A stretch of DNA of 64,000 nucleotides from Oscillospiraceae bacterium. GTDB lineage: Bacteria; Bacillota; Clostridia; Oscillospirales; Oscillospiraceae. The stretch spans positions 194,965 through 258,964 of the forward strand of contig CAJTFN010000005.1 in NCBI GenBank assembly GCA_910575815.1, given 5' to 3'. Below are positions 52,442 to 61,514 of the stretch, one piece after another (position 1 is the stretch's first letter; the number at the start of each line of letters is the position of its first letter). The notes under the pieces are model-generated. The model searched no databases. It worked only from the letters and a program-made list of their open reading frames with translations, and was not told the DNA's origin. A program made the translations under genes and the position numbers.

Positions 52442-54631
52442 TTAGCCGAGGAGCTGCAGCACGCCCTGGGGAACCGCGTTGGCCTGGGCCAGCATGGCCT
52501 GGGCGGACTGGACCAGGATGTTGTTCTTGGTGTAAGCCATCATCTCTTCGGCGACGTCGGTGTCGCGGATGGTGGACTCGGCGTCCTGGATGTTCTCCGC
52601 CATGACGCTCAGGTTGTTGGCGGTGTGCTCCAGACGGTTCTGGGTGGCGCCCAGGTCACCACGGACGCCGGAAACGTAGTTGATGGCGTTCTTGATGACG
52701 TCAATGGCCTCAGAAGCGCCCTCGGCAGAGCTGATGTCAATATCAGCAATGGACTTGCCGGAGACCAGAGCCTGGGTCTTCTCGCCATCGGCGCCATCGA
52801 CCTCCTCGAAGGTACCCATGGCATAGACGTGCATGTTGCCCACGCTGACCTTCAGCTGGTTAAAGCTATCAGAGGTGTCACCGATCTGGAGGGTCAGGCC
52901 GTTGCCGTCCTTGTTGGCCTCGAAGAGGGCCTTGACATTGGCGTCAACCGTAGTCTTGAGCGCGGTCAGGTCCGCAGCGGCGTCGCCGTCGCCGTGGGTG
53001 ATGGCGGTGATCTTGACGGTGGTGCCGTCAACCGTGGCGTTGTACTTCGCGGTATCCACGCCTTCCATCAGCTTCGCCTTCAGCTTCTCAGCCAGGTCCT
53101 CCGCGGTCAGCTCCTTGGCGTCGGCATTGGTCTCGCTGGCAACCACATACTCATCGTCGCCGATCTTCACGCGGTCGCCCAGCTGGAACTTGTTGAAGTC
53201 CACGCTCACGCCGCCGCTGACCGGAGCGGAATCTTGGCCTCTCTCAAAGGAGACCAGGCCCTGCATGGACTCGGGCGTACCATAGACCTTGTTGCTGGTC
53301 GTGGTCTGGTCCAAGTGCAGCTTGCCGTTGTGGGCGGAGAGATAGACTTCCTTGTTTGCCCCATTTGCAGCGTTGAGCTCAGTATTTATGGTGGAGTCGG
53401 TCATCTGGCGGAGGGCCTCGGCAATCTTAGCGTCATCCGTGGCGAACTTGGGATCGCTGACGTCGATCAGAATCTCGTTCTTGGCGGCGTCCGCCGTGGC
53501 GGCGCTGTTGGCGTCCGTCTTGAAGATGAAGGTGACATCCTCAGAGCCGTCTTCCGCGGTGCCCTTGATGGTCAGCTTGCTGTAGTCCGTGACAAGGCCC
53601 GTCAGATCGAGGTCGATACCGGCCCGCGCCGCGGCGTCCGCAGACTTCGCTTCCACGTAGTCATAAGCAGTATGGCGGTTCGCGGAGCCCTCCGCCACAG
53701 TGGCCGTGCCCGTAGCACCACCGGTGAGCTTAATCTCCGTGTCCCACTTGTCGTTCATGTTACCGGCTTCCGTAGCGTCATAGGTCTCACCATTCGCCAG
53801 TGTGAAGGTGAGCTCGCTACCAGTGCCGCCCACAGTGAAGCTGATGCCGTTGATGCTGACCTCACCGCCGGTAAAGGTCTTGAATGCAGTCGCCAGATCG
53901 TCGCCCTCGAACGTCTCATCACCGCCAGCGTTATTGGTTACAGTGAAGCTAACATTTTGGCCGCCAACATTAAGGGTAAAGGAACCCGTCGTACTTGCAG
54001 CACCGGAAACCGTGGCTTTCATGCCGTCCAAGTCCACCTTGAACGCCACAGTCGCCTGCGTGCCGTTGGCAGAGCCGGGGTGCCACGCGTTGTCGGTAGT
54101 GGTAGAACCGAACTTGTCGGTAATGCTCTCCGTCTCCCAGGTGGGATTGCTGTCCGCGCCCTGGATGACAGAAGCTTCCACGTTCCAAGCGGCGGTATTC
54201 GCCGTAGACAGGGAGCCGTCCAGCAGCTTAATGCCGTTGAAGTTGGCGGAGTCGGCGATACGGTTGATTTCAGAACGGAGCTGGTTGACTTCCTTCTGGA
54301 GGTTCAGCCGGTCCACGGGATCGTCATAAGTGCCGTTGGCGGACTGGGTGGCCAGGTAGTCCATGCGGTTGAGCATGTCCTGGATCTCCTGCATGGCGCC
54401 CTCAGCGGTCTTCACCAGGGAGATGCCGTCCTTGACGTTCTTCTGGGCGGCGTTCAGGCCGGTGATCTGAGCGCGCATCTTCTCGGAAATGGCCAGACCG
54501 GCGGCGTCGTCACCGGCGCGGTTGATCTTGTAACCGGAAGAGAGCTTCTCCAGGTTCTTGCTCAGAGCGCTGGTGTTGGTGTTGTAGTTACGGTAGGCGT
54601 TCATCGCCATGATGTTGTGTTGGATACGCAT
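52442..54631 (-). CDS. fliC: Flagellin
   Basis: Flagellar filament protein of 729 aa. The D0/D1 N-terminus ([19 protein letters not shown]...[29 protein letters not shown], to about residue 150) and the C-terminus (last 100 or so residues, [38 protein letters not shown]...[11 protein letters not shown]) are well conserved. The 470-residue centre is Thr/Ser/Ala/Asp-rich and surface exposed, a good substrate for O-glycosylation by the enzymes encoded next to it. It is longer than the usual 270-500 aa. AAAGGAG precedes the ATG. csrA lies directly upstream. Confidence 0.97.
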
Positions 54632-54690
54632 GATTGAACTCCTTTCAGTCTATTAATGTGCCCCGGAGCATCCTTTTACCGAAGCACAGG
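54632..54690 (-). promoter_or_regulatory. fliC leader with two GGA motifs (possible CsrA sites)
   Basis: The Shine-Dalgarno (GAAAGGAGT, 54638-54646) and an upstream AAAAGGATG (54670-54677) both carry AAGGA cores, the type bound by CsrA. In Bacillus subtilis CsrA blocks hag translation through such a pair. No clear sigma-28 promoter was found in the 152 nt between csrA and fliC, so fliC may also be read from upstream. Confidence 0.4.
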
Positions 54691-54783
54691 TCATGGAGCG
54701 CCGGGGAGCCGGGCCGCCGTGGCCACGGTGGTTCCGTCCTCCGGCGCGGGACAATATTTCAACCGGCCTAGGACCGGGTGAAA

Positions 54784-55143
54784 TCAAAGGGAAGCCGCCT
54801 CTCCGTCTCCGGAGGGCCTGGGGAAAATCACGTCCAGCTTTTCCCGAAGCAGCTGGGCCTCGGGGCCGCCGTCCATGCGCTCCAGGGCCTCCCGGAGCTC
54901 TTGCAGGGCCAGCTTCTTCTCCCGGTTCCAGGGGAGCTGGCGCACATACCGGGCGGGCTTTTCCTGGATGCAGGAGGGCTTTTGCCCGCCGTGGCGCTCC
55001 AGGACCTCTCCCCGGAGAATGGGAACCTCCCGCGGGGCGTGAATCATCAGGCAGACCCGCTCGCCGTGGAGGCGGTCGAACTGGACAACGGTGCTGTCCC
55101 CGACGGTGAAATAGTCGCCGGGTTTCATGGAAATACAAAGCAT
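54784..55143 (-). CDS. csrA: Carbon storage regulator CsrA-like protein with C-terminal extension
   Basis: RNA-binding translational regulator, 119 aa. Residues 1-53 match CsrA: a MLCISMKPGDYFTVGD start, HGERVCLMIHAPREVPILRGEV, with the critical Arg at position 44 and the GIxAP motif present as MIHAP. The second half (residues 54-119, a helical KPARYVRQLPWNREKKLALQELREALERM) is absent from the normal CsrA of about 60-75 aa. It is encoded just upstream of fliC, where CsrA commonly represses flagellin translation under FliW control. fliW is not in the window. The ATG at 55143 has AAGGAG upstream. Confidence 0.85.
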   Translation of the reverse strand: MLCISMKPGDYFTVGDSTVVQFDRLHGERVCLMIHAPREVPILRGEVLERHGGQKPSCIQEKPARYVRQLPWNREKKLALQELREALERMDGGPEAQLLREKLDVIFPRPSGDGEAASL

Positions 55144-55292
55144 GGCAGTCTCCTTGCAAACGTGCGGAACGAATCCTTCCGTTCCCTGGGGAAGCAAAAT
55201 ATTATGTTGAGTGGACGGCCCGGAAAGCCGGGCTTCGGGCGCCGTCCCCAGGGGGGAGTTGCCCTCTCTTCTTCCCACCGGGCGGCCTTGGG

Positions 55293-55411
55293 GGAACGCT
55301 GATTTCATTGGCAGAGGGATGGATGGGGGTTTTGAATCTGTCAATCAAATCAGCGCTTCCCGCCGCGCCTATGGGCATTTGCCGCCGTCCCGAGCGGCAA
55401 GGGGAGCCGCG
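55293..55411 (-). ncRNA. Candidate guide RNA of the TnpB-like protein
   Basis: TnpB-family guide RNAs are encoded over the 3' end of the gene and just beyond it, ending in a GAAGC...TTCAA-type motif followed by the guide. On the minus strand after the stop there is GGGAAGC (55355-55361), a short CTG/CAG hairpin, then GATTCAA (55332-55338) and a following segment AACCCCCATCCATCCC that would be the guide (55316-55331). The region 55293-55360 also forms an imperfect inverted repeat with arms of about 23 nt around a 20-nt loop. The boundary is uncertain and the gene 3' end probably contributes the scaffold. Confidence 0.4.
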
Positions 55412-56557
55412 TCAGGCGGCCTCCGTTTTCTGTTTCAGGAATTCCGCCAGGCCCATGTCCCGGATGTTCCGCGCGCCGTTGATCTCACGGGAGAGGTCCG
55501 CGCCGCAATGGGGGCAGGTCCAGCGCCGGGCCCGGGGAGGCAACGCCTCATGGACCGCGCCGCAGGCGTGACAGGTTTTGGCGGTGGGGGTGTAGGGGTC
55601 CAGGACAATGTAGGCCTTGCCCTGGCGCTCCAGCTTGTAGCGGAGGCAGTCCCGGAAGAGGCCGAAGCCGGCGTCCAGAACGTTTCCGCCCCGCAGCTTT
55701 CGGGCACGCTCCGTCAGGTCGGTGTCTCGCAGGCACACGGCGTCCCAGGCGTTGGCTATCCGCCGGGATTCCTTGTGGATGAAGTCCCGCCGCTGATTGG
55801 CGATGTGCTCGTGAAGAAGCCGGAGCTTTTGAAGCTGTTCCTCGTAATTTTTAGACCCGCGTTCCATCCTCGAGAGCCGCCGCTGCATCCGGGCCAGCTT
55901 CTCTCCGGACCGCTCCAGCCAGCGGGGCGGGTCCGGGCGATGGCCGTTGCTGTCCACGTAGAAGTGGGAGAGGGAGTCGTTGAGACCCAGGGTGGTTTCC
56001 GGCGTGGGAAGGGGTGCGGGGGGTTCCTGGACGGCATAGCCGAAGGTGACGGAGCAGAAATACTTGCCGCTTCTCGTCTTCGTGACGGTGGCGGACCGGG
56101 GGGACCACCAGTGGAGGGGGCTGCGATGGACCTTGGCCCGGATGAGCCCCAGCTTGGGCAGCCGGACGCCCTCTTTGGTCATGAGGACAGTGGGGCCGCT
56201 GCGGTACTGGCGGCAGTAGGTGGTGAAGGAATCCCGCCGGGCCTTTTTCGTTTTAAACTGGGGGTAGCGGAAGGCCGCCGGGTTCCGGAAGAAGTCCAGA
56301 AACGCCCGCCGGAGGTTCTGATGAACCGTGCACAGAGGCTGGCTGTCTACTTCTTTTAAGAAGGGGGCTTCCTTTTTATAATGAGCGGGAGTGGGGATAT
56401 ACTGGAGGTCCGTGGCGGCGTAAAATTCCTGCACGTCCGCCAGCATCTGGTTCCAGAGATACCGGCAGCAGCCAAAGGTTTTTTCCAGAAGCTCCGCCTG
56501 CTCCGGCGTGGGATAGAGACGGACTTTGAGGGTGGTAAACTGCTTCATGTCCGCCAT
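55412..56557 (-). CDS. TnpB-like protein with inactivated RuvC site (putative TldR, RNA-guided repressor)
   Basis: Full-length IS200/IS605-type TnpB (OrfB) homologue, 381 aa. The N-terminal helical/WED-REC region (KVRLYPTPEQAELLEKTFGCCRYLWNQML) and the C-terminal zinc ribbon (CHACG about residues 329-333, CPHCG about 348-352) are intact. The RuvC motifs align well with active clostridial TnpB proteins, but the catalytic residues differ: GLDFS becomes GLNDS (Asn193), the E of VIEDL becomes Arg277 (VCLRDTDL), and the last D of DRDxNAA becomes Glu358 (SREINGA). Such triple substitution with an intact frame is typical of TldRs, RNA-guided DNA-binding repressors. No tnpA is nearby. csrA and fliC follow on the same strand. 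The ATG has GGAGGG 6 nt upstream. Confidence 0.85.
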   Translation of the reverse strand: MADMKQFTTLKVRLYPTPEQAELLEKTFGCCRYLWNQMLADVQEFYAATDLQYIPTPAHYKKEAPFLKEVDSQPLCTVHQNLRRAFLDFFRNPAAFRYPQFKTKKARRDSFTTYCRQYRSGPTVLMTKEGVRLPKLGLIRAKVHRSPLHWWSPRSATVTKTRSGKYFCSVTFGYAVQEPPAPLPTPETTLGLNDSLSHFYVDSNGHRPDPPRWLERSGEKLARMQRRLSRMERGSKNYEEQLQKLRLLHEHIANQRRDFIHKESRRIANAWDAVCLRDTDLTERARKLRGGNVLDAGFGLFRDCLRYKLERQGKAYIVLDPYTPTAKTCHACGAVHEALPPRARRWTCPHCGADLSREINGARNIRDMGLAEFLKQKTEAA

Positions 56558-56604
56558 ATCCGTCCCTCCTCCGTGCCCGAATTTCCGGTTGAGAGAAAAA
56601 GATT

Positions 56605-56640
56605 GTCCGGAGTTGCGTACAACTCCGTCCAGCCTTTTTT
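56605..56640. repeat. Recombinase-site-like repeat, copy 1
   Basis: GTCCGGAGTTGCGTACAACT followed by CCGTCCAGCCTTTTTT. It contains the perfect dyad GGAGTTG-CGTA-CAACTCC. It repeats at 56719-56753. Together they bracket about 150 nt between the resolvase gene and the TnpB-like gene. Confidence 0.65.
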
Positions 56641-56718
56641 GATTTGCTCAACCGCTTTCATTACTACATATCGGCGCCATTTTATCAAAAATAATAGTCT
56701 GAATAAAAATAATTTTTC

Positions 56719-56753
56719 GTCCGGAGTTGTACACTTTTCCGTCCAGCCTTTTT
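56719..56753. repeat. Recombinase-site-like repeat, copy 2
   Basis: GTCCGGAGTTGTACACTTTT followed by CCGTCCAGCCTTTTT, in direct orientation to copy 1 and starting about 114 nt from it. It overlaps the last codon of the resolvase gene. The spacing and length resemble res subsites of Tn3-type resolvases. Confidence 0.6.
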
Positions 56754-57366
56754 ATGTGCGCTCAGCTTCTGTTTCCGCCCGCAGGGCAGCGTCATAAAAG
56801 GTGGATTTCGGCATCCCACAGGCATTTGCAGCGTCCCGCAGCGTCATTTGCTTTCTTCGCCACGCCTGATGAAACGCCTCGAAATTCTTCGGCAGGGCCT
56901 GGGCCTTCGGCCCAAAATGCACGCCCCTGGCCTTTGCCGCGGCAATGCCCTCCATCTGCCGCTGACGGATATTCTCCCGCTCTGTCTGCGCGACGTAGCT
57001 GAGAAGCTGGAGAACGATGTCGGAAATGAGCCTCCCGGTCAAGTCCCGACTCTGCCGGGTGTCCAACAGGGGCATGTCCAGCACCACAATGGCAGCTTCG
57101 TGTTTTTTCGTAATCAGGGACCACTGCTCCAGAATTTCTGTGTAGCTTCGCCCAAGGCGGTCAATGCTTTTCACCACCAGCACGTCCTCCGGACGCAATC
57201 CCTGCACCAGCTGCCGGTAACGGGGCCTGTTGAAGTCCTTCCCGGACACCTTCTCCACGACGATGTTTTCCTCGTGAACGCCAAAGTCCCGCATGGCGGA
57301 CAGCTGACGCGCCTCATTCTGCTCTTGGGTGGAAACCCGGACATATCCATAAATCGTTTCTGCCAT
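56752..57366 (-). CDS. Small serine resolvase/invertase
   Basis: Resolvase of 204 aa. Catalytic domain over residues 1-140 (IYGYVRVSTQEQNEARQ, nucleophile Ser12; VEKVSGKDFNRPRYRQLV; VKSIDRLGRSYTEIL; DIVLQLLSYVAQTERENIRQRQMEGIAAAKARGV), then a C-terminal Hin-like helix-turn-helix (MTLRDAANACGMPKSTFYDAAL). This domain order is that of Tn3 resolvases and DNA invertases, not of IS607 transposases, so it is not the TnpA of the neighbouring TnpB-like gene. The second of two close ATGs is chosen for its spacing to GGAGGG. It may act on the repeats just downstream. Confidence 0.88.
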   Translation of the reverse strand: MAETIYGYVRVSTQEQNEARQLSAMRDFGVHEENIVVEKVSGKDFNRPRYRQLVQGLRPEDVLVVKSIDRLGRSYTEILEQWSLITKKHEAAIVVLDMPLLDTRQSRDLTGRLISDIVLQLLSYVAQTERENIRQRQMEGIAAAKARGVHFGPKAQALPKNFEAFHQAWRRKQMTLRDAANACGMPKSTFYDAALRAETEAERT

Positions 57367-57734
57367 ACTCATCCCTCCTCGTACAAGATCGTGACCATAT
57401 TTTAACAAAAGAGGGCAAGTTTGGCATATGGATATTCCGCCCCGGCCTCCCCAGGGGGGTGGGCAAGGAGGACAACATATTCCGGAAAGCGGGCGGCGAA
57501 GGACTGGACGCCGGGATGAGCTTATGTAAAATTGGAAACTCTTTCGAGACGTGAAAGCCTTGGTTTGGTTGGACGGATGAAATCGTGCTGCGTGATTTGG
57601 TGTACGCTGAGCGAGAAGGCCTCTCGCAAGTCTGATAGCCAGCTTGTGTTTACAGGTTCTTAGGCCGGAGCAGCAAAAAGCCAGCAGAGCATAGCCATGA
57701 TAGTGCAAAGAAAAAGAGTAAGTATAGCTTTTTT
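57367..57734. other. Gene-free stretch between the flagellin island and mobile DNA
   Basis: About 370 nt without a convincing gene. A 28-codon frame at 57576-57662 and a 25-residue signal-peptide-like frame on the minus strand (57660-57737) end at the integrase junction and look accidental. Composition shifts toward A+T at the right end. Confidence 0.45.
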
Positions 57735-58287
57735 CATAAGGCTCTGCAACAGGCGATTGAAATTGGATACTTGCGTTCTAATCCTACCACCGCTTGCAAA
57801 TTGCCCAAAGTAGAGCAGAAAGAAGTCAAAGCGTTGGACAATGGAGCGATTCAATCTTTTTTGAAAGCCATCCGAGGACGCCGTTTTGAAGTAATCTTCC
57901 TTGTGACGTTATGCACTGGCTTGCGTCGTGGAGAAGTCTGCGGCCTTACCTGGGATTGTGTGGACCTGGAGCATGGGACAATCCACGTCAATAAACAGCT
58001 TCAACAGATTCCGGGGCAGTCTGGCAACTTCCGTCTTACGCCCACAAAGAATGGAAAAGGTCGTACAATTACAGCTGCCTCCTTTGTTGTGGATGCGCTG
58101 AGGCAGTATAAGGTTCAACAGACAGAAGCACGATTAAAAGCCGGACCTGATTGGCAGGATGAAGGATTTGTGTTTACGGATGAAGTGGGGCATCGCCTCT
58201 CTCCAAACACGGTCTACCACAATTACAAGCGGATTGTCGCTTCTATCGGCTTACCCGAAGCACGTCTGCACGACCTCAGACACCCAA
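57735..58287 (+). pseudogene. Tyrosine integrase, truncated at both ends
   Basis: Remnant of a phage/Tn916-type integrase. It starts inside the SAM-like core-binding domain (HKALQQAIEIGYLRSNPTTAC) and continues through the catalytic domain with the first Arg in LVTLCTGLRRGEVCGLTWDCV, the Lys region TPTKNGKGR and HDLRH, then breaks off. The later H/W box and catalytic Tyr are replaced by unrelated sequence from about 58284. The upstream DNA-binding domain is also lost. It probably marks the edge of an older element cut by the serine-recombinase module. Confidence 0.82.
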
Positions 58288-58351
58288 ATGTCAAGCCCAA
58301 GACAAAAACTTTTTCAAGTTTTTTAGAAATTTTCGCGGCTGTGTCCTATGC

Positions 58352-59899
58352 TCATATATCCATGCAGAAGTCTTTCATCTTCCAGACGATCTCCACCTGA
58401 TTATTGGGATAGACATATACCCGTTCAATCAGCGTATCGGCCAGCCCAGCCGTCAGGCTACCAGCCCCGACTACCTCCCGCGCCAGCTCGGTCCTGGCGC
58501 TTTTTGCTTTTTCGTCCATCTCCATCTGCGAGGTCTGCACCTTCAGATTGGAGTGGATTTCCCGCAGCCGGTCAAGCTCGCCGTCAATAGCGGATTTCTC
58601 GCTTTTGTAGTCCGCCATGGTGATCTGCTTCAAAATGAACCGCTCATACAGCGCCCGCTTTTGGTCCAGACAGCGATTGATCTGCTTGTCATACTCGGCC
58701 TGTTCCGCAAGCTGAACATCCAGCATTCCGGCGTTGGAGAGATCAGCCACATTCAAAATGACCTGCGCCTGTTTAGAGAGAATTTTGTATAACATCCCCT
58801 CCAGTTCTGCCTCCATGATCGTCAGGCCGTGGCAGGGGGCGGCTTCGTTTACCTTGCTGTGCCGACACTGAAAATAGTGATTTTTGTTTGCTGTCCGTGG
58901 CATAGCGTGACGGCAGCACCCACAGAACACTTTGCGCCGCAAGGGATAGGCATTAGCGTTTTTCTTGGGAGACTTCATCCGGGGCCGCCGGGCCTGCACC
59001 TGATCGAATAATTCCTTGCTGATGATGGCCTGATGGTGGTCGGGAATCTTGATCCACTGGCTTTCATCCTTCATCCGAACCCGGTGCCCGCCTACCTCCG
59101 TCACTTCCCGCTTTCCGATGATATATGTGCCGGTGTAGCGTTCATCCTCCAGAATGTGAATCACAGAGGATTCCTGCCAAATCCCGCAGCACCGGGAAAT
59201 GTCGTGGCCGTTGTAGCCGTGGGCTGCTTTGTACTCGGCAGGAGTGGGGATATGACGCTCAAACAGGGCCTTGACGATCTCATTCGGAGTGCGCCCATCC
59301 CGCGCCAATTCAAAGATCATCTGGACAATGGGGGCAGTTTCCTCGTTCGGCTCCATGCGGCCATCCGCACCCTTCCGGTAGCCGTAAGGACAAGTTTTAC
59401 TCTGATACTCGCCTCGCCGGAACTTCACATACTTGGCGCTTTTGTATTTGATGGACAGGTCCCGGCTGTAAAACTCGCTGACCAGATACTTGAATGCCAC
59501 ATTGATGCCGCCCGTGTCGCCATGGAGGGTGTCACTGTCAAAATTGTCGTTGATGGAGATGAAGCGGACACCGTACAGAGGGAAAACCATTTCCATAAAG
59601 TATCCCACTTCAATGCTGTTGCGCCCGAACCGGGTGAAGTCCTTCACAACGATACAGTTGATTTTTCCCTCCCGAATCTGGTCAAGCAATTCCTGGACGG
59701 CGGGCCGCTCGAAGTTGGTCCCGCTGTACCCGTTGTCGATGAACTCCAAGACCTCTACATTCTTAAGGCCCTCCATAGCATCAACGTATTGGTGGAGTGC
59801 GTTTTTCTGGTTCTCAATGCTGAAACTGCCCACCTTGCTGTCCTCGGTGGAGAGCCGGATATAGAGGGCGATCACATAGGGAATCAGACTGCTACTCAT
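58352..59899 (-). CDS. Large serine recombinase (TnpX-like)
   Basis: Intact large serine recombinase of 515 aa. Resolvase domain with ALYIRLSTEDSK (nucleophile Ser17), NGYSGTNFERPAV, VKDFTRFGRN; Recombinase domain about 175-290; zinc ribbon CGCC...CRHSK..PC at about 340-375; coiled coil and a C-terminal domain (LIERVYVYPNNQVEIVWK). It is encoded at the end of the element with the presumed attachment site just past its 3' end near 58288-58340. Its first codons overlap the truncated recombinase encoded upstream. Confidence 0.92.
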   Translation of the reverse strand: MSSSLIPYVIALYIRLSTEDSKVGSFSIENQKNALHQYVDAMEGLKNVEVLEFIDNGYSGTNFERPAVQELLDQIREGKINCIVVKDFTRFGRNSIEVGYFMEMVFPLYGVRFISINDNFDSDTLHGDTGGINVAFKYLVSEFYSRDLSIKYKSAKYVKFRRGEYQSKTCPYGYRKGADGRMEPNEETAPIVQMIFELARDGRTPNEIVKALFERHIPTPAEYKAAHGYNGHDISRCCGIWQESSVIHILEDERYTGTYIIGKREVTEVGGHRVRMKDESQWIKIPDHHQAIISKELFDQVQARRPRMKSPKKNANAYPLRRKVFCGCCRHAMPRTANKNHYFQCRHSKVNEAAPCHGLTIMEAELEGMLYKILSKQAQVILNVADLSNAGMLDVQLAEQAEYDKQINRCLDQKRALYERFILKQITMADYKSEKSAIDGELDRLREIHSNLKVQTSQMEMDEKAKSARTELAREVVGAGSLTAGLADTLIERVYVYPNNQVEIVWKMKDFCMDI

Positions 59900-60641
59900 T
59901 TCCCAGCACCTCCATCACACGCTCAAAGCCGCTTTCAAAGGCAAAGTCGATGGAAACATCCTCCGGGCCATTCACCGTGACCTTCCCAATCAGTTGATTT
60001 ACCAGCAGGGCGGAGAGAGCCGTGTTCTTGTCTACCGCCGCCAGCTTGTCGGCCATACTGGTGTACCGTGCCACCTGCCGCTCCAACTCGGATTGCCGGG
60101 TTTGAAGCTGCTGAACACGCTCCACCGCACCGCTGATCTTCTGACTGTAATCCTCCTGCATTTCCAGGTACTCCGCCCTAGTGAGGATGCCCTTGACGAA
60201 GCTCTCATAGAGGCCAGCGCGGAGGGCCTTGTCCTTCTGCGTCTGCCGCCCCAGCTCGTTGATCTCCTGCTCCACCTGGGCCTTCTGCGCGGCGATCCTG
60301 CCGTCACACTGTTTCAGCCGCAGGGCCTCGCCCATCACGACCTCGGCTTTCTGCCGGATGATGGTGAGAATCGTGTCAAACAAATCAGGTTCCGGCAAAT
60401 GAATAATGCCGCCTGTGCAGGAACCTTCCCCCATCCGGTCATTGGAGATACAGCGGTAGAAGTACCGCCCGTGACTTCTCTGCCGGTGAAGGTTTTTACC
60501 GCAGTGGGCGCAGAACACACGCCCCCGCAGGATGTTCTCGCTGTAAGGATTTTTCATGGTCCTGGTGTACTTTGCCGCCATTTGCTCCCGGACGGCCTGG
60601 GTCTTTGTGAATACCTCCCGGCTGACCAATGGCTCATACAA
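59892..60641 (-). pseudogene. C-terminal half of a second serine recombinase
   Basis: The frame reads EPLVSREVFTKTQAVREQM, a zinc ribbon (CAHCGKNLHRQ...CISNDRMGEGSC), a coiled coil and the KVTVNGPEDVSIDFAF end of a large serine recombinase. The whole catalytic domain is missing: the sequence changes at about 60630-60645 into a plus-strand conjugative-element gene. Tandem recombinases are common in clostridial elements, so this looks like a partner gene cut by a rearrangement. Confidence 0.82.
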
Positions 60642-61161
60642 GTATTATTCTACCCAGCGGCCCGTTGACATCGGCACGTTCCCCAATGGCAAGGAAAACC
60701 CGCCCATCCGGATCGAAAACTACGAGGGCCGGATTTGGGTGGAGCATGATACCCGGCTTGCATGGGGCGAGCTGGCCTATGCCCAGCCGCTCACGGAAAA
60801 GGAGCTCTATAATTACGAACTCAAGCCATCCCGTGATAACCCGGATATGCGGCGGCTGATGGATACCCAGGCCCAGGTGGTGGGGAAATGGGAGGACGAG
60901 GGCTGCATCCCTGATGGAAAGCGGCTGACATGGTTTTACCCGGATTTTGGGTGCTATGTAGTGAAAGAATTTGTTTCCCCGGAGCGGCTGGCCGAGTGTG
61001 CCCGTGGGGTGGAGCTCCAGCAGGAGGCCGCTGGCCGTAAACGGGCCCGGCAGGAAAAACCCCCGATTGCCGCACAACTGCGGGAGGCTGGGAAACTGGC
61101 CGGGGAACGGCAGGCCCCCGCCGCGCCCAAACGGAACACGCCCGACCGGGGCGACAGGTAG
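60640..61161 (+). CDS. Conjugative-element hypothetical protein, 5' end lost
   Basis: Reads KYYSTQRPVDIGTFPNGKENPPIRIENY..., ending about 173 codons later. Proteins starting with this STQRPVDIGTFP motif are common next to mobC and relaxase genes in Tn1549-like and related clostridial elements and have no known function. No good start is seen at the junction with the truncated recombinase. The open frame runs back to 60556 through recombinase antisense DNA, so the original start is probably missing or replaced. Its stop lies 2 nt before mobC. Confidence 0.65.
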   Translation, partial: KYYSTQRPVDIGTFPNGKENPPIRIENYEGRIWVEHDTRLAWGELAYAQPLTEKELYNYELKPSRDNPDMRRLMDTQAQVVGKWEDEGCIPDGKRLTWFYPDFGCYVVKEFVSPERLAECARGVELQQEAAGRKRARQEKPPIAAQLREAGKLAGERQAPAAPKRNTPDRGDR

Positions 61162-61163
61162 GC

Positions 61164-61514
61164 ATGGCCGGAAAAAAGCGCCGCCGCCCCGTCCATCTTC
61201 ATGTGATGGTATCCGAGGAAGAGCAGGCGCTTATCCGGGAACGCATGGCCCAGGCGGGCATCCGCAATATGGGCGCGTATATGCGGAGGATGGCTCTGTG
61301 CGGCTATGTGCTCCAAGTTGACCTTGCCCCCGTCCGGGAGCTGGTGTCCCTCCAGCGGCGGTGCTCAAACAATCTCAATCAAGTGGCTATCCATGCCAAC
61401 ACCTACGGGGGGATTTACCCCGAGGAAATATCGGCCCTGCAACGGGACTACTCCGCTTTGTGGGGGCCTTTGTCTGATTTGCTGAAACAGCTTTCCGCGC
61501 TGGTGGAGCTGTGA
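61164..61514 (+). CDS. mobC: Mobilization relaxosome protein MobC
   Basis: Relaxosome accessory protein of 116 aa. It has a basic start (MAGKKRRRPVHLHVMVSEEE), a ribbon-helix-helix-like region (GIRNMGAYMRRMALCGYV) and the MobC core LQRRCSNNLNQVAIHANTYGGIYPEEI. It binds the transfer origin and helps the relaxase encoded downstream. Confidence 0.85.
   Translation: MAGKKRRRPVHLHVMVSEEEQALIRERMAQAGIRNMGAYMRRMALCGYVLQVDLAPVRELVSLQRRCSNNLNQVAIHANTYGGIYPEEISALQRDYSALWGPLSDLLKQLSALVEL

What the first reader, a model, noticed from the sequence alone, without database searches (positions are those of the whole stretch)
55412..56557. Nuclease-dead TnpB (putative TldR) immediately upstream of csrA and fliC
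Seen: an intact 381-residue TnpB-like frame with zinc ribbon, where the three RuvC acidic positions read Asn193, Arg277 and Glu358. No tnpA is present, and csrA and fliC follow on the same strand. Known: TnpB homologues that lost the RuvC triad (TldRs) are guide-RNA-directed transcription repressors, with examples beside fliC in enterobacterial prophages and beside oppF in enterococci. Inference: an independently exapted RNA-guided repressor controls flagellin or csrA in this Clostridia lineage.
Basis: partly seen in the sequence, partly recalled or inferred. Interest (0 to 1): 0.95.

Follow-up and report, generated by a model that had tools for sequence, protein, structure and literature searches.

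The report
Nuclease-dead TnpB beside flagellin switch
Beside a flagellin gene, this bacterium carries a TnpB-like protein whose DNA-cutting residues are changed; with a predicted guide RNA next to it, the protein likely silences the cell's other flagellin gene, as published relatives of 2026 are thought to do.

Summary
Window 55412-56557 (-) is an intact 381-residue TnpB homologue with N193/R277/E358 in place of the RuvC D/E/D. On one strand lie a hin-type recombinase, a predicted 120-bp inverton, tldR, a structured RNA, csrA and fliC. The kind is known: Walker et al. 2026 (PMC13418256) describe csrA-associated TldRs with hin, inverton, guide RNA and fliC targets. This is a new member. In 54 loci, fliC follows in 42 of 42 evaluable, csrA directly follows in 41 of 51, hin lies upstream in 35 of 47; 27 distant relatives have none within the fetched flanks. 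The 32 dead homologues put in a tree form one clade beside an intact TnpB with tnpA. Guides fit another flagellin better than the locus's own in 28 of 29 loci, 1 tie, so the adjacent fliC or csrA is probably not the target. For the window alone the target is unproven: 25 genome sites match the guide with up to 3 mismatches, control 23, and the own/other ranking depends on where the guide starts. Likely function: an RNA-guided counterpart of Salmonella's hin-fljBA flagellin switch.

The parts
55412..56557 (-). tldR: nuclease-dead TnpB homologue, 381 aa, RuvC positions N193/R277/E358
   Evidence: AlphaFold model mean pLDDT 83, top PDB match ISDra2 TnpB
55211..55397 (-). predicted guide-RNA scaffold between tldR and csrA, with a long central stem; ends ...GGGCCGTCCAC (its 3' border with the guide is uncertain by about 4 nt)
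   Evidence: MFE -95.8 kcal/mol, z -3.25, folded as 55190-55411; 14-locus alignment with 25 of 46 predicted pairs showing a two-sided change
55195..55210 (-). predicted guide TCAACATAATATTTTG; TCAA may belong to the scaffold
54784..55143 (-). accessory csrA, 119 aa (CsrA domain in residues 1-50 plus a C-terminal extension)
   Evidence: PF02599; a second csrA overlapping a fliW (PF02623) lies on contig C9
52442..54631 (-). locus flagellin fliC, 729 aa
   Evidence: PF00669 and PF00700
56752..57372 (-). Hin/resolvase-type serine recombinase (start codon 57372 or 57366)
   Evidence: PF00239 E 1.6e-30; the IS607 transposase model matches far below its cut-off (30.9 against 110 bits)
56605..56630 (.). 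hix-like 26-bp dyad, central dinucleotide GT (+ strand)
   Evidence: repeat, letters checked; the dyad centre was read from the sequence
56719..56744 (.). hix-like 26-bp dyad, central dinucleotide AC (+ strand), inverted relative to the other
   Evidence: repeat, letters checked; inverted arms 56596-56627 and 56722-56753, 75% complementary
56668..56675 (-). flagellar-sigma-type -10 (GCCGATAT) inside the predicted inverton, reading towards tldR; no clear -35
   Evidence: the only [GA]CCGAT[AT] on either strand of 54600-57500; the motif is recalled consensus
54669..54675 (-). AAGGATG CsrA-type motif in the loop of a predicted leader hairpin of the locus fliC
   Evidence: motif from Walker 2026 Fig. 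6 legend; the hairpin is not more stable than shuffles (z -1.05)

Best explanation
The window holds a member of the csrA-associated TldR clade: a TnpB relative with changed residues at all three RuvC catalytic positions, which likely uses the structured RNA predicted just downstream of it as a guide to bind, and so repress, another flagellin gene of the same cell. Proposed working (inferred): a Hin-type invertase flips a roughly 120-bp segment that carries the only flagellar-sigma-like -10 site found between hin and fliC. In the orientation seen here it would drive tldR, guide RNA, csrA and the locus flagellin together. TldR plus guide would then block transcription of the alternative flagellin (G000 contig C3, start codon region), whose own FliA-like promoter lies about 200 bp upstream of its start. 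CsrA would damp translation of flagellin mRNA. The locus flagellin would be spared because it differs from the guide at synonymous sites. In the other orientation the alternative flagellin would be made. This is the logic of Salmonella hin-fljBA with an RNA-guided repressor in the place of FljA (FljA is recalled; Walker et al. also name the Salmonella Hin switch). Shown: residues, gene order, conservation, guide/target statistics across relatives, RNA covariation. Inferred: RNA expression, DNA binding, repression, inversion, CsrA targets.
For: None of 120 listed homologues has the full triad, nor does any csrA/fliC-linked locus frame that covers the sites, while the nearest relatives without the linkage (L126, L133, L127, L139, L062) read D-E-D. 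Synteny: fliC 42 of 42, csrA directly downstream 41 of 51, hin upstream on either strand 35 of 47 evaluable loci of 54; 0 of 27 distant loci have any in the fetched flanks. In a tree of 48 chosen rows the 32 dead ones lie on one side of a single branch, support 100/100, with L126 (intact triad, beside a Y1 transposase, PF01797) next to it. Guides were extracted from 49 of 54 loci; 29 had both an own and another flagellin, and the other matches better in 28, tie in 1, own better in 0; 9 of 9 loci with a single other flagellin agree. Relabelling own/other: no run of 20,000 reached the observed value. In the K-type subclade, guides fit flagellins of their own genome better than those of other genomes (positions 1-12: 0 of 5,000 shuffles; positions 13-18: p 0.0016). 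In L021 the roles are reversed (guide has AACATC, own fliC AATATT, another fliC AACATC), as self-exemption predicts. RNA structure covariation. Published RIP-seq, ChIP-seq and inversion data for the clade: PMC13418256 section 11, read.
Against: For the window alone the target is not established. The 16-nt guide matches C3 fliC with 3 mismatches; 25 genome sites (its own locus included) have 3 or fewer, against 23 for the pattern read backwards, and sites on C11 and C41 match with 2; no flagellin was recognised by eye near those two. If the guide starts at TCAA and only 9 nt count, the window's own fliC fits slightly better than C3 (scores 1.0 and 1.5); over all 29 loci that definition gives 21 other-better, 2 own-better, 6 ties. 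A 6-nt seed, as measured for the Enterobacter TldR (passage), would leave the window's own/other choice resting on wobble pairs. Synonymous divergence in codons 2-9 is raised between own and other flagellins (0.551 against 0.215 in codons 10-40), but also between pairs of other flagellins (0.434 against 0.227), so part of it is generic. The CsrA motif is in both flagellin leaders here, in hairpins not more stable than shuffles, and in only 8 of 33 own and 12 of 41 other leaders overall. The -10 has no good -35, and an exact [GA]CCGATA was found in the scanned upstream stretch of only 15 of 54 loci, 9 reading towards tldR and 6 away. The window's 16-bp inverted arm match is 13 of 16 against 12 in five shuffles. 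The gene is patchy: 7 of 36 same-genus genomes gave a close match.
Confidence: 0.8

Rival explanations
1. TldR acts on its own flagellin: the guide represses the adjacent fliC (autoregulation) or both flagellins.
For: With a 9-nt guide starting at TCAA the window's own fliC fits slightly better than the other; four of the five differences between the 16-nt guide and the own fliC are U-G wobbles that may be tolerated (sequences).
Against: Across 29 loci the own fliC never fits better with the 12-nt definition, and in the K-type subclade it never fits better with any of three definitions.
Confidence: 0.12
2. A decaying transposon remnant: a TnpB that lost catalysis by drift and has no present function.
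For: An intact and a broken ordinary TnpB exist in the same genome (L002, L003), and the gene is patchy in the genus.
Against: Open frames down to 60% identity in the 24 aligned, one clade with fixed neighbours, site-2 R/K kept in 116 of 120 homologues, RNA covariation, guide/target fit.
Confidence: 0.03
3. An active TnpB nuclease with a shifted acidic triad (for example D194, D278 or D280, E358).
For: Acidic residues lie next to the changed sites (GLND, LRDTD), and E358 is itself acidic.
Against: The neighbouring acids are not conserved: relatives read GLNYS or GLKYS and R followed by D, A, G, S, E and others; K or H stands at site 1 in many relatives. The model is TnpB-like but does not fix side-chain geometry.
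Confidence: 0.03
4. The unit controls csrA rather than flagellin: TldR tunes the accessory csrA beside it.
For: Adjacency only.
Against: csrA is absent directly downstream in 10 of 51 evaluable loci whereas fliC is present in 42 of 42; guides align to flagellin codons 4-11.
Confidence: 0.02

Closest known systems
csrA-associated TldR clade (Walker et al. 2026, Nat Microbiol, PMC13418256; outline and sections 11, 12, 33 read, other passages by word search; figures and supplements not seen)
   Same: Dead TnpB, hin upstream with about 120-bp inverton and FliA promoter, guide RNA downstream with an expanded stem, csrA and fliC next, targets inside other fliC reading frames
   Different: This locus is in the N-R-E subclade with a different guide register (CATAATATT after GTCCACTCA[AG]); whether that subclade was among those tested I could not tell. 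Synonymous self-exemption was not found in its main text by the words 'synonym' and 'self-target'; it does report that natural guide-target mismatches of TldR homologues still repress (passage).
First-described TldRs, fliC- and oppF-associated (Wiegand et al. 2024; not held; recalled only)
   Same: TnpB homologue without RuvC catalysis working as RNA-guided repressor
   Different: The fliC type is phage-encoded and aims at the fliC promoter region (Walker passages); no hin-csrA unit (recalled)
Salmonella hin-fljBA flagellar phase variation (recalled; Hin inversion also named in Walker section 11)
   Same: Invertible promoter drives one flagellin together with a repressor of the other
   Different: FljA is a protein repressor; here an RNA-guided one is proposed, plus an accessory CsrA
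IS200/IS605 TnpB (ISDra2, 8h1j/8bf8; L126 in a same-genus genome)
   Same: Fold and sequence, 26% identity in the Foldseek alignment to 8h1j, 43% to L126; similar 3' end of the downstream region (AAGCCC..., GT[TC]CAC)
   Different: Catalytic residues changed, no tnpA, one such copy in this genome

Membership tests
TldR (csrA-associated clade) | TnpB homology over the full length | tested here: met
   (NF040570 241 bits, cut-off 100)
TldR (csrA-associated clade) | Loss of the RuvC catalytic triad | tested here: met
   N193/R277/E358
TldR (csrA-associated clade) | No transposase partner; not an IS | tested here: met
   No tnpA seen beside it (ORF list, by eye); one dead copy in the genome
TldR (csrA-associated clade) | Neighbours csrA and fliC within 3 kb (criterion of Walker section 33) | tested here: met
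TldR (csrA-associated clade) | hin upstream with an inverton carrying a FliA promoter (said of most loci) | tested here: inconclusive
   hin and inverted dyads present, -10 present, -35 weak; flipped state not seen
TldR (csrA-associated clade) | Structured guide RNA 3' of the gene | tested here: met
   Predicted and supported by covariation; expression not tested
TldR (csrA-associated clade) | Guide matches another flagellin gene | tested here: inconclusive
   Met for the clade (28 of 29); for this window not above chance on its own and dependent on the guide's start
TldR (csrA-associated clade) | RNA-guided DNA binding without cleavage; RNase III-cut dual guide | not testable with these tools
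   needs protein and RNA experiments; a long central stem is predicted
Active IS200/IS605 TnpB | D-E-D triad | tested here: not met
Active IS200/IS605 TnpB | tnpA partner and mobile ends | tested here: not met
   No tnpA seen; conserved synteny; IS ends as such were not searched for
IS607 element (serine recombinase plus TnpB) | IS607-type TnpA | tested here: not met
   Upstream recombinase scores 30.9 bits against a cut-off of 110; its PF00239 domain covers residues 5-149

The most novel reading that the evidence does not exclude
The tldR-csrA-fliC unit carries a self/non-self code for flagellins: the guide reads codons 4-11 of flagellin, the unit's own flagellin escapes by synonymous recoding of just those codons, and guides are re-aimed as flagellins change (reversed roles in L021, a guide moved to the start codon in L017, codon-by-codon tracking in the K-type subclade). 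With the Hin switch this makes an RNA-guided flagellin phase-variation system whose target can be rewritten by point mutation, in two subclades that use different guide registers.
Probability: 0.55. Interest if true: 0.65.

Novelty: new member of a known kind. Interest (0 to 1): 0.45.

Why it matters
It adds a member, and a comparative test over 29 loci, to a recently published class in which a former transposon nuclease became a gene regulator. If the self/non-self reading is right, synonymous sites at the start of flagellin genes are under selection as guide-RNA targets, which is directly testable and would let one read flagellin hierarchies from sequence.

Tried and rejected
Rejected: IS607 membership through the serine recombinase. 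Rejected: an Rfam family for the RNA; only one chance-level hit over 54600-57500. Rejected: A/G at the base before CATAATATT as a specificity base; it does not follow the other flagellin's codon (table, read by eye). Left open: a GTAT-type TAM for the N-type subclade (own flagellins GGAT in 10 of 12, others 2 of 20), because codon 2 also differs in the K-type subclade. A shared-word comparison of the window's intergenic region with the other flagellin locus gave only 10-12-nt matches outside the flagellin start; the match emerged only after aligning relatives. Chance control for the window's guide: not above background. The last line failed (a method that does not exist); the tree itself is unaffected, but its bootstrap had not fully settled and some outer branches are long.

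Rows dropped or limited before counts: 5 of 54 loci gave no guide by my two patterns (L008, L017, L018, L025, L049); L017 has a readable, different guide and was judged by eye only. Of the other 49, 14 lay in genomes whose flagellins I did not fetch and 6 lacked an own or another flagellin start. One search was given 30 of the 53 relative loci (28 genomes); a few further loci (L006, L026, L016, L037, L047, L055, L045) were assigned to those genomes by accession prefix. Flagellin starts were taken only from the stronger hits that begin at profile position 1; weak ones (such as G019:C190, G001:C15, G002:C58, G015:C30) and hits without the N terminus were left out. L115, L116, L188 and L189 gave no usable start. 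'Other' flagellins include those of other tldR loci in the same genome. The tree used 48 rows that I chose.

Full report
What is there. The minus strand of the window reads, in order: a Hin/resolvase-type serine recombinase (56752-57372), two 26-bp dyads 114 bp apart, a TnpB-like gene (55412-56557), a structured intergenic RNA region, csrA (54784-55143) and flagellin fliC (52442-54631). The TnpB-like frame is intact, 381 aa, and aligns nearly end to end with ISDra2 TnpB. At the catalytic positions it has N193, R277 and E358. An AlphaFold model (mean pLDDT 83, pTM 0.57) matches ISDra2 TnpB best in the PDB (TM 0.53 normalised by query); that supports the fold but not side-chain detail.

Is the triad truly lost? 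I aligned the 120 listed homologues of 4,750 found and the best frame of each of the 80 genome loci. None of 120 has D at site 1, 2 of 120 have E at site 2, 9 of 120 have D at site 3, none has all three; 116 of 120 have R or K at site 2. The loci fall into an N-R-E type (window, L004-L017, L054, with variants) and a K-R-E type (most of L019-L056, with variants). The 27 distant loci (L057-L083) are D-E-D wherever the frame covers all three sites, except L083 (R-E-D).

Neighbourhood. Among 54 loci (window plus L004-L056), counting only those whose contig reaches far enough, fliC follows in 42 of 42, csrA follows directly in 41 of 51 and hin lies upstream, on either strand, in 35 of 47; none of the 27 distant loci has any of the three in the fetched flanks. 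L007, L010 and L011 have csrA between hin and tldR instead. A tree of 48 chosen proteins puts all 32 dead ones on one side of a single branch (100/100); the nearest row outside is L126, an intact-triad TnpB 43% identical to the window protein, from the window's genus, beside an IS200-type Y1 transposase. The bootstrap had not settled and some outer branches are long. In the window's genus the gene is patchy: 7 of 36 other genomes gave a close match (E below 1e-130), and the 8 frames there are dead.

Prior art. Walker et al. 2026 (PMC13418256; outline, sections 11, 12, 33 and word-search passages read; figures and supplements not seen) describe this kind of locus: TldRs linked to csrA and fliC in gut commensals, guide RNAs aimed inside other fliC reading frames (RIP-seq and ChIP-seq), CsrA bound to the leader of the targeted fliC, an RNase III-cut dual guide RNA, and hin upstream of most loci with about 120-bp inversions around a FliA-dependent promoter in Flavonifractor plautii. 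So the finding is a member of a known kind. Searches for other papers: (listings only).

The guide RNA. The region 55190-55411 (-) folds at -95.8 kcal/mol (z -3.25). An alignment of 14 N-type loci gives 46 predicted pairs, 25 of them with at least one two-sided change, many in the long central stem. The 3' end is conserved...GGGC-GTCCACTCA[AG] followed by CATAATATTAT and variants in the N type, and ...GGCGT[CT] followed by CA[CA]AATATTATG-A-CN-ATG and variants in the K type. These strings resemble flagellin codons 4-11 (CA[AG] CA[CT] AA[TC] AT[TC] ATG GCN ATG). The intact-triad relative L126 has GTTCAC at the matching place, which suggests the scaffold ends at GT[TC]CAC; then the window guide is TCAACATAATATTTTG (55195-55210), otherwise it starts 4 nt later. 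I could not decide this.

The target. The window genome (4.56 Mb, 81 contigs) has two strong flagellin hits, the locus one and one on contig C3, and a third weak, partial hit on C1. Against the 12 nt from codon 5, the C3 gene has 1 mismatch and 1 U-G wobble, the locus gene 1 mismatch and 3 wobbles. On its own this proves nothing: 25 genome sites, the guide itself included, match the 16-nt guide with up to 3 mismatches, about as many as for a backward control (23). The support is comparative. From 28 relative genomes plus the window's, 29 loci had a guide, an own and at least one other flagellin: the other fits better in 28, tie in 1; with a single other flagellin 9 of 9; relabelling gives 0 of 20,000 as extreme. 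With the GT[TC]CAC boundary the count is 25 better, 0 worse, 4 ties; with a 9-nt seed after that boundary it is 21, 2, 6, and the window is one of the 2. K-type guides fit their own genome's flagellins better than others'. Two cases speak strongly: L021, where guide and flagellins have swapped codons, and L017, whose guide is aimed at the start codon region, where its own and one other flagellin differ (L017 judged by eye). The control for recoding is weaker: codons 2-9 are more diverged at synonymous sites between own and other flagellins (0.551 against 0.215; 52 pairs), but also between two other flagellins (0.434 against 0.227; 25 pairs).

The switch. The dyads on the + strand have centres GT and AC, that is, inverted relative to each other; arms 56596-56627 and 56722-56753 are 75% complementary. 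Of 29 loci with a same-strand hin frame just upstream (window included), 21 have a 16-bp inverted pair of 14 or more matches; the window has 13, its five shuffles at most 12. The only [GA]CCGAT[AT] on either strand from 54600 to 57500 lies between the dyads and reads towards tldR, with a poor -35. Over 54 loci an exact [GA]CCGATA was found upstream of tldR in 15, 9 reading towards it and 6 away. GCCGATA stands within 220 bp upstream of 0 of 33 own and 7 of 41 other flagellins; the C3 gene has TTAA-N15-GCCGATAA about 204 bp upstream of its start (spacing read). I therefore propose one phase-variable unit, with tldR, guide, csrA and the locus flagellin on together and the C3 flagellin off. The flipped state was not seen here.

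CsrA. A fliW-csrA pair is on C9, so the window's csrA is a second one. AAGGATG sits in the loop of a predicted hairpin in both flagellin leaders, and neither hairpin is more stable than shuffles (z -1.26 and -1.05), so the present data do not say which message CsrA acts on.

Verdict. Observation confirmed; TldR reading right; the adjacent gene is probably not the target; the system is already described, and this is a new member. What may be new is the comparative evidence for self-exemption and re-aiming of guides, and a mismatch kept in the K type (guide position 13 is A in 30 of 34, the flagellin base G in 67 of 67 distinct starts), which I cannot explain. The paper's main text was searched only by the words, and its figures, which show guides, were not seen, so these points may be there.

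Noticed in passing
K-type loci L019-L056, guide position 13 counted from flagellin codon 5: 30 of 34 guides have A where all 67 distinct flagellin starts have G, a conserved mismatch, although the bases after it follow the target flagellin.
   Followed up: partly
L007, L010, L011: Gene order is hin-csrA-tldR-fliC rather than hin-tldR-csrA-fliC.
   Followed up: no
L004, L018, L032, L033, L040; L004 7291-7758, L045 1168-1596: In five loci the upstream hin frame lies on the opposite strand to tldR; in L004 and L045 a hin-like frame also lies between tldR and csrA.
   Followed up: no
window 57771-61514: Beyond hin: a tyrosine-recombinase frame, a large serine recombinase, a second recombinase piece in which only the zinc-ribbon part was found, and a NikA-like mobilisation protein, apparently the border of another mobile element.
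   Followed up: partly
L002 (G000:C15:19028-20113) and L003 (G000:C16:37413-37991): The same genome also has an ordinary TnpB with D-E-D and a broken TnpB with an in-frame stop.
   Followed up: no
window about 54757-54784 (-), L085 leader and several relatives: A recurring hairpin-like element (TTTCACCCGG...CCGGTTG[GA]AAT) in flagellin leaders of both own and other genes; no Rfam match in the window (9 of 33 own, 5 of 41 other by a strict pattern).
   Followed up: partly
L017 (G012): A TldR with N-K-G at the catalytic sites whose guide is aimed at the start codon region instead of codon 5 onwards.
   Followed up: partly
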